This document shows positions 24,490 to 31,581 of a stretch of DNA of 47,965 bases, piece after piece (within the stretch, counting starts at the first letter, position 1; the number at the start of each line of letters is the position of its first letter). A program made the position numbers and the translations under genes. A model generated the notes under the pieces. That model ran no database searches. It saw only the letters and a list, made by a program, of their open reading frames with translations, and was not told where the DNA came from. Origin of the DNA: Serratia sp. M24T3 (GTDB lineage: Bacteria > Pseudomonadota > Gammaproteobacteria > Enterobacterales > Enterobacteriaceae); the NCBI RefSeq assembly GCF_000257645.1, contig NZ_AJHJ01000038.1, positions 1 to 47,965 on the forward strand. Reading direction: 5' to 3'.

Positions 24490-25902
24490 ATGCAACGAGG
24501 GATAGTCTGGATCGTCGATGACGATAGCTCCATCCGCTGGGTTCTTGAACGCGCGCTCACTGGGGCGGGTTTAAACTGCACCACGTTCGACAGCGGCAAT
24601 GAAGTGCTGGAAGCCATTGCGACTCAAACCCCTGACGTTTTGTTATCAGATATTCGCATGCCCGGAATGGATGGGTTGGCGCTGTTAAAACAAATCAAAC
24701 AACGTCATCCGATGTTGCCGGTGATTATCATGACCGCGCATTCTGATTTGGACGCGGCGGTCAGCGCATACCAACAGGGCGCATTTGATTATTTGCCGAA
24801 ACCTTTTGATATCGACGAAGCGGTTGCCCTGGTTGAACGTGCTATCAGCCATTATCAGGAACAACAGCAGCCGGCGCGGAGCCAGCCTGCCAGTGGCCCA
24901 ACGGCGGATATTATCGGTGAAGCGCCAGCGATGCAGGACGTGTTTCGCATCATTGGTCGTCTTTCCCGGTCATCAATAAGTGTGTTGATCAACGGCGAAT
25001 CAGGAACGGGTAAAGAGCTGGTCGCTCACGCCCTGCATCGTCACAGTCCACGAGCCAAAGCGCCGTTTATCGCATTGAACATGGCGGCTATTCCCAAAGA
25101 CTTGATCGAGTCAGAACTGTTTGGTCATGAGAAAGGGGCCTTTACCGGCGCTAATCAGATCCGCCAGGGACGTTTTGAACAGGCCGATAACGGCACCTTA
25201 TTTCTGGATGAAATCGGCGATATGCCGATGGATGTTCAGACCCGTTTGCTGCGCGTTTTGGCTGATGGTCAGTTCTATCGCGTAGGCGGCTATGCGCCAG
25301 TGAAAGTGGACGTGCGTATCATTGCCGCAACCCACCAGAACCTGGAGCTGCGCGTACAGGAAGGCAAATTCCGTGAGGACTTGTTCCACCGCCTGAACGT
25401 AATTCGCGTACATTTGCCACCGCTGCGTGAACGCCGTGAAGATATTCCACGTCTGGCGCGTTATTTCCTGCAAGTTGCCGCTAAAGAGTTGGGTGTTGAA
25501 GCCAAGAATCTTCATCCAGAGACTGAAACGGCACTGACGCGTTTACCGTGGCAGGGCAACGTGCGCCAGCTAGAGAACACCTGTCGCTGGTTGACAGTGA
25601 TGGCGGCCGGTCAGGAAGTATTGATTCAGGACTTGCCTTCTGAGTTGTTTGAAAGCAGCGCGCCGGAGACCGGTGGGCAAAGTCTGCCTGACAGCTGGGC
25701 AACCCTGCTGGCACAGTGGGCCGATCGCGCGCTGCGCTCCGGTCATCAAAACCTTCTTTCAGAAGCACAGCCAGAAATGGAACGCACTCTACTGACCACC
25801 GCGCTGCGCCATACGCAAGGTCACAAGCAAGAAGCTGCAAGACTGCTGGGCTGGGGACGTAACACGCTTACCCGCAAGCTTAAAGAATTGGGCATGGAAT
25901 AA
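24490..25902 (+). CDS. glnG: nitrogen response regulator NtrC
   Basis: The 470-aa sigma-54 activator starts MQRGIVW; in-frame starts inside glnL are ignored. The receiver domain has Asp54 in LLSDIRMPGMDG. The AAA+ domain has Walker A GESGTGKE, the sigma-54-contacting GAFTGA loop and Walker B GTLFLDEIGDM. The Fis-type helix-turn-helix is at the C-terminus (KQEAARLLGWGRNTLTRKLKEL). It is translated right after glnL (AGGT overlapping the stop region) and is followed by a strong terminator. Confidence 0.98.
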   Translation: MQRGIVWIVDDDSSIRWVLERALTGAGLNCTTFDSGNEVLEAIATQTPDVLLSDIRMPGMDGLALLKQIKQRHPMLPVIIMTAHSDLDAAVSAYQQGAFDYLPKPFDIDEAVALVERAISHYQEQQQPARSQPASGPTADIIGEAPAMQDVFRIIGRLSRSSISVLINGESGTGKELVAHALHRHSPRAKAPFIALNMAAIPKDLIESELFGHEKGAFTGANQIRQGRFEQADNGTLFLDEIGDMPMDVQTRLLRVLADGQFYRVGGYAPVKVDVRIIAATHQNLELRVQEGKFREDLFHRLNVIRVHLPPLRERREDIPRLARYFLQVAAKELGVEAKNLHPETETALTRLPWQGNVRQLENTCRWLTVMAAGQEVLIQDLPSELFESSAPETGGQSLPDSWATLLAQWADRALRSGHQNLLSEAQPEMERTLLTTALRHTQGHKQEAARLLGWGRNTLTRKLKELGME

Positions 25903-26116: not shown

Positions 26117-26202
26117 ATTAATCATTAACACCACGATTATGGGGAACTGAGGCTCAATAAAAAATGAATAAAACAGTATTGGAAGAAGACACTTTCGACG
26201 GG

Positions 26203-26834
26203 ATGCTTGAACTGTTTGACGTCAGCTATGAAGAGCTGAAGATGACGCACTCGAATGAGCTTTATCGACTAAGAAAAAAACCTTTAGCGATCGGCTGGGA
26301 TGGGATGTGGTTTGCAACGTCGACATGGAGTTCGATGAGTTCGATAACCCCAGCACTCGTTATATTCTGGGTCTGTGTAAAGGCCAGCTGATTTGTAGCG
26401 TGCGTTTTACCGATCTCGATCAACCCAACATGATTACTCACACTTTTCGTGAATGTTTTGATTCTGTTCCGCTGCCACTCGGTGGCATGGAATCGAGCCG
26501 TTTTTTTGTCGATAAAACGCGTGCGCGACAACTGCTTGGCGAACGCTTCCCGATTAGTCAGATTCTGTTTGTTGCCATGATTAACTGGGCACGACAAAAC
26601 AACCGCGATGGGATCCATACTATTGTAAGCCGACCGATGCTGACTATCCTGAAACGCTCAGGATGGCAGATAGAGCCACTTAAAGAGGCTTACCTCAGCG
26701 AGCGGGAGCGAATCTATCTTGTATATCTGCCAACCACTGCCGAAGACCAGTCACAGATGGCCTCAGGGCTTGTTAACGACCTTGGCCATGCTGAATCTTC
26801 GGTGATTACCTGGCCGCTGTCGCTGCCGGTGTAA
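26203..26834 (+). pseudogene. EsaI-type acyl-homoserine-lactone synthase, split by a one-base frameshift
   Basis: From the ATG at 26203 the frame reads MLELFDVSYEELKMTHSNELYRLRKK up to base 26280, then shifts and ends at 26391. From about 26280 to 26834 the -1 frame carries the rest of a LuxI protein with Trp34, Asp45, Asp48, Arg68, Glu97, Arg100 and Thr140 (EsaI numbering) all present. Adding one A to the A7 run at 26274-26280 restores a 210-aa protein, the length of Pantoea EsaI and very similar to it. EsaI makes 3-oxo-C6-homoserine lactone; Thr140 fits 3-oxo specificity. As read, the 0-frame product is too short to work. A7 lies in phase as A_AAA_AAA, a strong -1 ribosomal slip site, so some full-length enzyme might still be made. 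A sequencing error is also possible. The in-frame ATG at 26164 would add 13 residues. Confidence 0.9.
26274..26280 (+). other. in-phase A_AAA_AAA slippery heptamer at the luxI frameshift
   Basis: Frame-0 codons across the site are AGA-AAA-AAA-CCT. Slipping back by one gives AAA-AAA-ACC-TTT (Lys-Lys-Thr-Phe), exactly the family sequence. This is the right phase and direction for -1 frameshifting, and A runs also promote polymerase slippage. I saw no convincing stimulatory stem or upstream Shine-Dalgarno at the ideal distance. Confidence 0.75.
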
Positions 26835-27552
26835 TGAGTTCTAGTTCAACGCCCAGCCGGATTGCCTGGCGGGCGTTGCTGACCCCCAGCTTGCTGACAA
26901 TATTACCCATGTGAAACTTTACCGTGCTCACGGAAATACCCACGATGCCGACAATCTCGCCATAGGTTTTCCCCATGCTTGCCCAATAAAGCACCTCGTT
27001 CTCACGAGGGGTGAAAATAGCTTTGTTGGTATCGGCATTTTTTTGCCTTCCCGATGAAGCAGCGCTAGCCAAGTGATACATCTGCTCATTGATATCGATG
27101 AGCAGCATCTGCATGGCTCCCCGCTCGGAAGAGAGCCGGGCTTCTAGTTCCTCTTGTTGGTTGCTGGCAATAATGATCGACAGCAACGCCAGATTATTCA
27201 TATGGTCATGCAACACAAAGGTGAAGCCATTGACGATGTTGTACTTCCTGGAGAGAGAAAAAATCTTGGTAAACTTCAGATCGGACATCAGGGTAATATT
27301 TTCATCCCAGGCAAAAGGCGATGTGCGTTTAAACGCCGTCAATATTACCGGATCGGTCAGTTGAAAATTGTTGGTGCGATATAAATTCACCCATTCGTCA
27401 GGATAGCTCGAAATAATAAGCATATCTGAAGGTTTTTTCTTGCTGAGGACCGTGTAAGCGTATTCCACACAGCCGAGTGAGGACAATTTTCTATCGATGT
27501 GATCCCGGAGTGTTTCCGTGATGGTCTTATTTTCATTGAATGCAGAAAACAT
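26806..27552 (-). CDS. EsaR/YenR-type LuxR quorum-sensing regulator
   Basis: The 248-aa protein closely matches EsaR of Pantoea stewartii. The AHL-binding domain keeps Trp54, Tyr58, Asp67 (in NNFQLTDPVIL) and Trp82, and the block AFKRTSPFAWDENITLMSDL. The LuxR-type helix-turn-helix is TPRENEVLYWASMGKTYGEIVGIVGISVSTVKFHMGNIV. Members of this clade bind DNA without ligand and are released by AHL, so it is expected to be a repressor. It is convergent with luxI and the two genes share 29 bases at their 3' ends. It appears intact although its partner synthase is frameshifted. A lux-box palindrome lies 41 bases upstream. Confidence 0.93.
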   Translation of the reverse strand: MFSAFNENKTITETLRDHIDRKLSSLGCVEYAYTVLSKKKPSDMLIISSYPDEWVNLYRTNNFQLTDPVILTAFKRTSPFAWDENITLMSDLKFTKIFSLSRKYNIVNGFTFVLHDHMNNLALLSIIIASNQQEELEARLSSERGAMQMLLIDINEQMYHLASAASSGRQKNADTNKAIFTPRENEVLYWASMGKTYGEIVGIVGISVSTVKFHMGNIVSKLGVSNARQAIRLGVELELITPAATAAR

Positions 27553-28356: not shown

Positions 28357-29646
28357 ATGCTGGTGATATTGAGTGTTTTGATGCTCATCTTCTTTATATT
28401 TTGTTTGATGACCAAGCGACTGTCAGCCCTGACCGCCTTGATCCTTATTCCCACCATTTTCGCGCTGATAGGTGGTTTCTATGCCCACATCGGCAAATTT
28501 ATGATGGATGGGATAAAAACCGTCGCACCCAATGGGGTGATGATTATCTTTGCCATGCTTTATTTTATGGTAATGACCGAAGCAGGCATGTTTGACCCGC
28601 TGGTTAAACGGGTAATTAAGGCGGTAAAAGGCGATCCGGTAAAAATCTTTCTCGGCACAGTGCTGCTGGCGTTTATTGTCGCGCTGGATGGCGATGGGGC
28701 AACTATTTATATCATTGTACTCTCAGCTTTCCTGCCGATTTATAAACGTCTGGGCCTGTCTCTGCCGATGGTTTGCTGCCTGCTGCTGCAGGTATCCGGT
28801 CTCGGCAACATGGTGCCATGGGGCGGCCCAACGGCGCGTGCGGCCACTTCAATGCACGTTGATATTGGTACCATGTTTGTGCCGATGCTACCTGCCTTGG
28901 TGGCCAGTGCGATATGGACCTTTGTTCTTGCCTATATCTTTGGCCGCCGCGAGCGAGCGCGCTTAGGATCAGACTTGAACCTAAATTTCGAGAACGCAAT
29001 CGACGAGCAACATCGTTGTCGTGGCCCGAAAACCTTCTATTTTAACTGGGCACTGACCATTTTATTGATTATCGGTTTATGTGTCGAAGTGTTACCGTTA
29101 AGCTATCTGTTTATGATTGCCGCCTGTCTGGCGCTCATCGTTAACTTCCCGGACCTGCAAGCCCAAAAAGAACAGCTGGAACAACACGCGCCACCGATTC
29201 TCGCCGTGTCCAGCCTAATTTTTGCTGCGGGAGTCTTTACCGGCGTGTTTACCGGCACAGGCATGGTCAATGCGGTTGGTAGCGCGCTGCTGGATGTCAT
29301 CCCTGACGCGCTAGGGCCATACATGGCCGTTGTAACAGCCTTGCTGAGTATTCCGATGACCTGGCTGGTGTCCAACGATGTGTTCTATTTTGGTGTGCTG
29401 CCCGTGTTGGCAGATACCGCAAAACATCACGGCATTAGTGGTATCGAAATGGCGCGAGCCGCGTTGATGGGCCAGCCAGTTCATATTCTGAGCCCGCTGG
29501 TTGCTTCAACTTATTTGGTGGTCAGTATGCTGAAACTCGATTATTCAGAGAATCAGTACTTCACCTTTAAATGGTCTTTGGTCAGTAGTTTAATTTTGAT
29601 AGCGGTTTCGCTGCTGACCGGGATTTTCCCTTTTTACGCTGCATAG
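28357..29646 (+). CDS. CitMHS-family citrate/metal:proton symporter
   Basis: The 429-aa protein has about 12 membrane segments. It matches the CitMHS family in MIIFAMLYFMVMTEAGMFDPLV, the acidic motif FIVALDGDGATIYII and GLGNMVPWGGPTARAA. Characterised members take up citrate complexed with a divalent metal such as Mg or Ca. The ribosome site GAGGA is eight bases before the ATG. It is followed after eight bases by the TerC-type gene, almost certainly co-transcribed. The true substrate could be another di- or tricarboxylate, given the dehydrogenase and RraA genes nearby. Confidence 0.88.
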   Translation: MLVILSVLMLIFFIFCLMTKRLSALTALILIPTIFALIGGFYAHIGKFMMDGIKTVAPNGVMIIFAMLYFMVMTEAGMFDPLVKRVIKAVKGDPVKIFLGTVLLAFIVALDGDGATIYIIVLSAFLPIYKRLGLSLPMVCCLLLQVSGLGNMVPWGGPTARAATSMHVDIGTMFVPMLPALVASAIWTFVLAYIFGRRERARLGSDLNLNFENAIDEQHRCRGPKTFYFNWALTILLIIGLCVEVLPLSYLFMIAACLALIVNFPDLQAQKEQLEQHAPPILAVSSLIFAAGVFTGVFTGTGMVNAVGSALLDVIPDALGPYMAVVTALLSIPMTWLVSNDVFYFGVLPVLADTAKHHGISGIEMARAALMGQPVHILSPLVASTYLVVSMLKLDYSENQYFTFKWSLVSSLILIAVSLLTGIFPFYAA

Positions 29647-30422: not shown

Positions 30423-30893
30423 TTACTTCAGGCTTTCGGCGGCTGCCTTGGCAATCTCTATTTCATTCGGATTGGCAGAACCACTGACGCCTACAGAGCC
30501 AATAACTGCATCGCGGTACACAATCGGGTTACCGCCACCCAATGGCACCATACCAGGCAATGTAGCAATAGCAGGCTCTGCGCCGTTGGCACGCCCCATA
30601 TATTTGTCAGTCGGGGTATGATAAAGCGCGCCTGCGCGTGCTTTTAAAATTGAGGAATCAATGCAGCCTACCGGTGCGTTATCCATACGCTTGAATGACA
30701 TCAGCTGGCCAGCCTGGTCAACTATGGCAATACAAACATTGGCATGCAGGCTCTGCGCTTTTTCTGTTGCCACTGTAATAAGTTTTGCTGCATCTTCTGC
30801 TGAAAGAATAGTTTGCGTGATTGTGGCATTGGCTGAAAATGCACTCAGGCTGCCGAGTGAACATAAGGCCGCTAACATCAGAATTTTTTTCAC
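30423..30893 (-). CDS. exported HbpS/GlcG-family protein (copy A)
   Basis: The 156-aa protein begins at a GTG preceded by CGGGAAT, giving a clean Sec signal peptide (KKILMLAALCSLGSLSAFSANA). The mature part is the HbpS-like/GlcG fold: L-S-A-E-D-A near the start, AIVDQAGQLMSFKRMDNAPVGCIDSSILKARAG, and the C-terminal GSVGVSG. HbpS proteins bind heme or haem-degradation products in Streptomyces; GlcG is of unknown function in glycolate gene clusters. It is 134 bases after a paralogue on the same strand. The paralogue lacks the cysteine in the VGCIDSS segment. Confidence 0.83.
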   Translation of the reverse strand: MKKILMLAALCSLGSLSAFSANATITQTILSAEDAAKLITVATEKAQSLHANVCIAIVDQAGQLMSFKRMDNAPVGCIDSSILKARAGALYHTPTDKYMGRANGAEPAIATLPGMVPLGGGNPIVYRDAVIGSVGVSGSANPNEIEIAKAAAESLK

Positions 30894-30973
30894 TGTTATA
30901 TTCCCGTATTGATTAATGAATAGCATTGTTGATAGCTGGAACTATGAATAGTTAACATTACTCACCAAATACG

Positions 30974-31027: not shown

Positions 31028-31504
31028 TTATTTCAGTACTGTCAGAGCCGCTTTAGCTGCTTCTGCATCAACGCTGCCATCAGGCGTGCTCACACCAATA
31101 GCGCCAACGACCTGGCCGTCTAATTTGATTGGGATCCCTCCTGCGAAAGGCAGAATTTTTGGGTTACCCAAAATAAGCATATTTCCTTTAGCAACTTTGT
31201 CTTGATAAGCCTCTGTCGGCTGTCCGAAATAAGCCGAGGTTTTTGCTTTCTCAGGAGCTAATGCAATATTAGCAGGTGTAGAACCGTCTAAACGATCGAA
31301 GGTAATTAATTGACCAGCAGCATCAACAATAGCCACTGCGCCACCAATGTGGTGCGATTTAATGGTTTCTTCGGCCTTTTTAACTAATTCGTTGGCCTGA
31401 TCGTGGGTAATGACTGGAACGCGAGTAATACCGTCGTCCGCCGCCTGTGCTGCAAAACCCACCAGCAGGCCAGAAACCAATAATGCACAACTTACTTTCT
31501 TCAT
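31028..31504 (-). CDS. exported HbpS/GlcG-family protein (copy B)
   Basis: The 158-aa protein starts at MKKVSCALLVSGLLVGFAAQAA, a Sec signal peptide; a start eight codons upstream is less likely. It shares with copy A the blocks GAVAIVDAAGQLITFDRLDGS, GGIPI and VVGAIGVS, but their overall identity looks moderate, so this is an old duplication. It is 77 bases after the doxX-like gene, which suggests one transcript doxX-hbpS-hbpS. A role in heme, flavin or small-acid binding in the periplasm is possible but unproven. Confidence 0.83.
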   Translation of the reverse strand: MKKVSCALLVSGLLVGFAAQAADDGITRVPVITHDQANELVKKAEETIKSHHIGGAVAIVDAAGQLITFDRLDGSTPANIALAPEKAKTSAYFGQPTEAYQDKVAKGNMLILGNPKILPFAGGIPIKLDGQVVGAIGVSTPDGSVDAEAAKAALTVLK

Positions 31505-31581
31505 AATAAATCTCACTTTATTTGACACATTACGCGGACACGATAAACGTGGAACCGCAGTTACAGATTTAATTCTGAACG

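What the first reader, a model, noticed from the sequence alone, without database searches (positions are those of the whole stretch)
26203..26834. Quorum-sensing synthase split exactly at an in-phase A7 slippery heptamer
One A is missing from a run at 26274-26280. All catalytic residues on both sides are intact, and restoring the base gives a 210-aa EsaI-like enzyme. The run is A_AAA_AAA in the reading phase that favours -1 slipping, and a -1 slip gives back the exact family residues Lys-Lys-Thr-Phe. So AHL production may be tuned by ribosomal frameshifting or transcriptional slippage, or be phase-variable by A7/A8 switching. A recent mutation or a homopolymer sequencing error are the plain alternatives.
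Basis: partly seen in the sequence, partly recalled or inferred. Interest (0 to 1): 0.8.

Follow-up and report, generated by a model that had tools for sequence, protein, structure and literature searches.

The report
Broken quorum-signal gene in one strain
One strain of a Rouxiella bacterium carries a signal-making gene broken at a slip-prone run of A's, while the only other strain of its species that could be compared carries it whole, so this looks like an ordinary recent loss (or a sequencing slip) and not a new control switch.

Summary
An EsaI-type acyl-homoserine-lactone (AHL) synthase gene at 26203-26834 (+) is split at the seven-A run 26274-26280, which lies in the phase of a -1 slippery heptamer. 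Tuned frameshifting is not supported. The one other genome of the species that is held (G060) carries the gene as a single open frame; the two genomes differ in length at one place in 5.6 kb, this run, and the 39 and 175 residues compared on its two sides are identical. All 26 homologue loci found by similarity are single frames; 8 carry the same long A run in frame. Of 7 other split or truncated copies examined, 2, both multiply broken, also change frame at this motif, so it behaves as a break-prone site. No stimulating RNA structure was found. A recent null allele by replication slippage is the best reading. A sequencing error is less likely but not excluded: run-length differences between the two genomes are rare and depleted inside genes. 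Leaky synthesis or reversion by a second slip remains possible. The neighbouring luxR and a second luxI elsewhere are intact. The genus is Rouxiella; the species could not be named.

The parts
26164..26391 (+). Upstream piece of the AHL synthase gene (open frame from ATG 26164; homologous start ATG 26203), ending in an out-of-phase tail and stop
26274..26280 (+). Seven-A run where the reading frame breaks; in -1 slippery phase relative to the upstream frame
26259..26834 (+). Downstream piece of the AHL synthase gene (stop-to-stop open frame; first listed start codon GTG 26307)
26806..27552 (-). Intact LuxR-type regulator, convergent with and overlapping the synthase tail by 29 bases
24490..25902 (+). 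glnG (NtrC), left neighbour; next to citMHS without the lux pair in three other Rouxiella genomes
   Evidence: start inferred
28357..29646 (+). Citrate:proton symporter (citMHS), right neighbour

Best explanation
This is a strain-level null allele of an EsaI-type AHL synthase. The conserved stretch Leu-Arg-Lys-Lys-Thr-Phe is written in part of this subgroup with a long in-frame run of A's, a slip site for DNA polymerase. A one-base length change in that run, recent because the pieces on both sides still match the intact conspecific protein residue for residue, put the two halves out of frame. The strain most likely makes a 62-aa fragment (from 26203) and no functional enzyme from this gene. 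Its intact partner LuxR and a second intact luxI elsewhere in the genome may keep AHL sensing or signalling going. Shown: the split, the intact conspecific copy, the shared A run, the intact neighbours. Inferred: replication slippage, loss of enzyme, persistence of signalling.
For: Conspecific G060 has one open frame; the only length difference between the 5,601 and 5,602 bases compared lies in the run, beside 24 substitutions. The flanking protein pieces are 100% identical to G060 over 39 and 175 aa. The same A8 run stands in frame in 8 of 26 homologue loci found by similarity and in 1 of 30 best-scoring places of a family search; 54 distinct in all. Of 7 other split or truncated luxI-like places examined, 2 (G084, G389), both with further frame breaks, also change frame at this motif. 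Broken ORFs are ordinary between the two strains: 13 of 613 matched G060 ORFs are not full length in G000, and 20 of 616 the other way. The second luxI is whole in both strains.
Against: No reads are available, so a base-calling or assembly error cannot be ruled out. With no further lesion besides the run, the gene shows no sign of decay, which fits a very recent mutation but also an artefact or a leaky or switchable gene. One category of singleton frame breaks is expected to be sequencing errors rather than mutations (PMC3711429, passage).
Confidence: 0.7

Rival explanations
1. Sequencing or assembly error in the homopolymer of a 113-contig draft; the gene is really intact.
For: The gene is otherwise preserved. 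One-base differences in runs whose longer allele is 5 or more are shorter in G000 in 19 of 28 cases, p 0.087. Singletons of one category are expected to be errors (PMC3711429, passage).
Against: Of 120 runs of 7 or more inside ORFs of 150 aa or more, 3 differ by an indel, against 12 of 107 elsewhere (Fisher p 0.014): random errors would not avoid genes. G000 has fewer broken ORFs than the near-complete G060 (13 of 613 against 20 of 616). All one-base gaps together are 42 against 42, and with a longer allele of 7 or more 10 against 5, p 0.30.
Confidence: 0.18
2. Leaky decoding: RNA polymerase or ribosome slips at the run at a low rate, so a trace of active synthase is made and may matter because AHL circuits often amplify themselves (recalled).
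For: The run is in the correct -1 phase. An A_AAA_AAA cassette from another gene family gave 10% frameshifting in E. coli (PMC3711429 section 24). Insertion slippage on one A7 run by E. coli RNA polymerase was 0.39% (PMC6260861 section 20).
Against: Without stimulators, 39 heptamers (61%) raised frameshifting 2.1 to 10 fold over a no-motif background of 0.055% (PMC4066793 section 17; the value for A7 is in a figure that I did not see). Bacterial RNA polymerase needs at least seven T and even more A in a gfp test (PMC6260861 abstract passage). No clear stimulator here.
Confidence: 0.07
3. Phase variation: the run length flips at high frequency and switches AHL production on and off in sub-populations.
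For: The run length differs between two strains of the species, and the long A run is shared by several relatives. Poly-A/T of 7 or more was counted as a possible cause of phase variation in PMC3711429 (passage).
Against: No off allele among the 26 loci found by similarity. The two other copies broken at this motif have further breaks, so they look decayed and not switched.
Confidence: 0.04
4. Programmed -1 frameshifting that tunes AHL synthesis.
For: Heptamer phase, and the -1 frame continues with the family residues.
Against: The frame break is in 0 of 26 homologue loci found by similarity, conspecific included; the RNA after the run is no more stable than shuffled (z 0.70 and 0.41; -0.37 for a stretch spanning the run).
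Confidence: 0.01

Closest known systems
EsaI-type AHL synthase (LuxI family, Pfam PF00765; solved EsaI 1k4j/1kzf)
   Same: Both pieces align with EsaI in order, with 9 chain residues between the two aligned stretches; convergent LuxR partner, as also in the relatives
   Different: Here the gene is out of frame after the Lys-Lys of the Leu-Arg-Lys-Lys-Thr-Phe motif
Homopolymer frameshift pseudogenes (singleton 'hypothetical pseudogene / error' class of Antonov et al. 2013, PMC3711429)
   Same: Single occurrence, poly-A at the break, intact relatives
   Different: Nothing of substance; a conspecific with an intact copy is at hand, which shows that the break is recent or an artefact
Programmed -1 frameshift sites such as dnaX or insertion-sequence transposases
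   Same: Heptamer A_AAA_AAA in the right phase
   Different: No conserved break, no stimulator structure found, and no second product known

Membership tests
Functional LuxI/EsaI AHL synthase | Sequence match to the Autoind_synth family | tested here: met
   Downstream piece PF00765 147.3 bits, cut-off 24; both pieces match EsaI
Functional LuxI/EsaI AHL synthase | One continuous reading frame | tested here: not met
   Frames change at 26274-26280; the 26 homologue loci each have one frame
Functional LuxI/EsaI AHL synthase | AHL synthesis | not testable with these tools
   Needs a biosensor or mass spectrometry
Programmed -1 ribosomal frameshifting | In-phase slippery heptamer | tested here: met
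Programmed -1 ribosomal frameshifting | Frame break conserved in orthologues | tested here: not met
   0 of 26 homologue loci found by similarity, G060 included; the 30 loci were picked as best-scoring and read as open frames, so they do not count; 2 of 7 split or truncated copies break at the motif but have further breaks
Programmed -1 ribosomal frameshifting | Downstream RNA structure | tested here: not met
   z 0.70 (70 nt) and 0.41 (100 nt); pseudoknots not modelled
Programmed -1 ribosomal frameshifting | Upstream Shine-Dalgarno-like stimulator | tested here: inconclusive
   Best matches 4 of 6 letters, the nearer 13 nt before the run
Programmed transcriptional realignment | Homopolymer, often of eight or more | tested here: not met
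   Seven A's; 'often eight or longer' from PMC3711429 section 9
Phase-variable contingency locus | Run length differs between strains | tested here: met
   G000 against G060; two strains only
Phase-variable contingency locus | Reversible switching within a population | not testable with these tools
   No reads or colonies
Recent pseudogene / null allele | Intact copy in a close relative and frame-breaking lesion here | tested here: met
Recent pseudogene / null allele | Lesion present in the organism and not only in the assembly | tested here: inconclusive
   Indirect only

The most novel reading that the evidence does not exclude
The Lys-Lys codons of EsaI-type synthases form a shared slip site, so that AHL production in this group can be lost and regained by one-base slips (a quorum-sensing on/off locus), with a trace of enzyme still made in the 'off' state by polymerase or ribosome slipping. 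Three of eight broken copies looked at (the window's and two decayed ones) change frame at this motif.
Probability: 0.08. Interest if true: 0.6.

Novelty: new member of a known kind. Interest (0 to 1): 0.17.

Why it matters
As it stands it is one more strain-specific loss of a quorum-sensing synthase, useful for annotation: the strain should not be assumed to make this AHL, and its LuxR partner may now answer only to other signals. If the shared A run proved to switch, it would mean that signal producers and non-producers can interconvert by a single slip in this subgroup.

Tried and rejected
Programmed frameshifting: tested by conservation, RNA folding and a Shine-Dalgarno scan; rejected. Error as the main reading: tested by comparing about 731 kb of the two genomes; weakened, not excluded. 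Caveats: my ORF lists are mechanical and include spurious short ORFs; 69 of 682 G060 ORFs and 27 of 643 G000 ORFs had no match at 88% identity and were not judged; the first 38,415 bases of contig C2 were left out of the G000 ORFs. A first run-length script based on flank matching gave many 'not found' and false differences and was replaced by an alignment-based count. That count defines runs in G060 only, which favours 'shorter in G000', so I repeated it symmetrically. An internal start at GTG 26307 as a functional shorter enzyme: rejected because it would lack the N-terminal 35 residues that align with EsaI.

Species naming failed: the plasmid of G060 has no match covering 80% in the plasmid collection.

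Paper searches for AHL synthases or luxI with phase variation, slipped-strand mispairing or single-nucleotide deletion gave 0, 1 and 0 papers. A search for luxI with frameshift and pseudogene gave 4. I opened none of these five and make no claim about what is in print.

Full report
What is there. The run 26274-26280 is seven A's. The upstream frame, from ATG 26164 or the homologous start ATG 26203, ends at 26391. The downstream frame is open from 26259 to 26834. Searched apart, the 26-residue upstream piece matches residues 21-46 of the solved EsaI chain (E 2.9e-7). The 175-residue downstream piece matches residues 56-230 (E 1.7e-71) and Pfam PF00765 (147.3 bits). The convergent LuxR-type gene at 26806-27552 is intact (248 aa). 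The genome holds a second luxI without stops (G000:C2:365427-365948, 217.5 bits). Its counterpart in G060 has a convergent luxR beside it.

Where it is. The window is one whole 47,965-base contig of a 5.25-Mb, 113-contig assembly. A same-genus genome has the contig length and hit of Rouxiella aceris SAP-1, so the genus is Rouxiella. The species was not identified. The lux pair lies between glnG and citMHS in this species. In three other Rouxiella genomes (G001, G003, G004) those two genes are neighbours without it; in G002 citMHS was not seen next to glnG. The nearest synthase found outside the species is 75% identical over the downstream piece, in Serratia quinivorans.

The decisive comparison. 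The only other genome of the species that is held, G060 (chromosome 5,274,856 bases), has the gene as one open frame. Across 5.6 kb the two genomes show 24 substitutions and one length difference, which lies in this run. The protein pieces on either side are identical to G060's over 39 and 175 residues, although three of the substitutions fall inside the gene. Over the whole window there are 375 mismatches and two gaps in 47,899 aligned columns. The break is therefore either very recent or an artefact.

Family comparison. I read the codons at this site in two sets. The first is every locus brought in by similarity to the downstream piece or as the genome's own second copy: 26 loci after repeats of the same place were dropped, not chosen for being open, and all 26 are single open frames. 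The second is the 30 best-scoring places of a search of 392 genomes of the family; these were read as open frames and cannot show broken copies. Together they are 54 distinct genes. The eight-A run in frame occurs in 8 of 26 and 1 of 30, in each case where the residues are Leu-Arg-Lys-Lys-Thr-Phe; 19 of the 30 in the second set have Leu-Arg-Lys-Glu-Thr-Phe instead.

Broken copies elsewhere. In the 392 genomes, 116 had a match and 114 one over the cut-off; the match list was cut. Seven split or truncated places from that list were fetched. Two change frame at this motif: G084, a 1.2-Mb genome, with several breaks, and G389, with at least one more break further on and a short A run. In the other five the piece that covers the motif runs on in one frame. 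So the motif is a place where this gene breaks more than once, but in copies that look decayed; this supports a break-prone site and not a conserved recoding signal.

Error or mutation. In about 731 kb of aligned columns, 613 of 682 G060 ORFs of 100 aa or more had a match in G000, and 600 of the 613 were full length there. Of the 13 others, three are frame breaks at or beside a run: luxI, an 893-aa helicase-like gene and a 251-aa gene with a marginal Trans_reg_C match. Six are in-frame stops and four are rearranged, repeat-bearing or divergent. In the other direction 616 of 643 matched and 596 of these are full, so G000 is not the worse assembly. Of 120 runs of seven or more inside ORFs of 150 aa or more, 105 were unchanged, 12 had substitutions and 3 had indels. 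Elsewhere the counts were 86, 9 and 12 of 107. The difference in indels has p 0.014 and suggests selection, hence real mutations. A symmetric count of one-base gaps gave 42 shorter and 42 longer in G000 in all, 19 and 9 for runs of five or more (p 0.087), and 10 and 5 for seven or more (p 0.30). The lean towards shorter in long runs is against my reading but weak. Reads would settle it.

Could a trace of enzyme be made? From the papers: without stimulators, 39 heptamers (61%) raise -1 frameshifting 2.1 to 10 fold over a 0.055% background in E. coli (PMC4066793, section 17; the value for A7 is in a figure that I did not see). Insertion slippage by E. coli RNA polymerase on one A7 run was 0.39% (PMC6260861, section 20). 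An A_AAA_AAA cassette of an unrelated gene family gave 10% (PMC3711429, section 24). The RNA after the run folds no better than shuffled sequence (z 0.70 and 0.41). A trace is plausible, a tuned output is not.

Classification. By the criteria of Antonov et al. (PMC3711429, section 9 part 1), programmed frameshifts need a cluster of at least five such genes with a conserved site. In what I examined this is at most one of three, the other two decayed; it fits their class of indel mutations and errors. For the genus, PMC9749400 (passages and section 19) reports Rouxiella badensis as an onion pathogen and lists a homoserine-lactone cluster among nine found in the ten R. badensis genomes it examined. 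It was not shown that the window is that species.

Noticed in passing
26164-27552: The luxI/luxR pair sits between glnG and citMHS in this species; in three other Rouxiella genomes examined (G001, G003, G004) glnG and citMHS are neighbours without it, suggesting gain here or loss there.
   Followed up: partly
L001 (G000:C2:363927-366911): A second luxI without stops lies near the end of contig C2, 37% identical to the window's; its G060 counterpart (L061) has a convergent luxR beside it.
   Followed up: partly
L070:1275-3956 (G060) and its G000 counterpart on C2 near 270610: An 893-aa gene with superfamily-1 helicase and DUF2726 matches is whole in G060 and split in the window's genome next to an A run.
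   Followed up: no
30423-30926 and 31028-31528: Two neighbouring genes on the - strand with similar short proteins (167 and 166 aa), possibly a tandem duplication.
   Followed up: no
L162 (G084:C1:436500-437800) and L159 (G389:C1:821500-822700): Two other genomes of the family keep luxI-like genes with more than one frame break, one of which falls at the same motif as in the window.
   Followed up: partly
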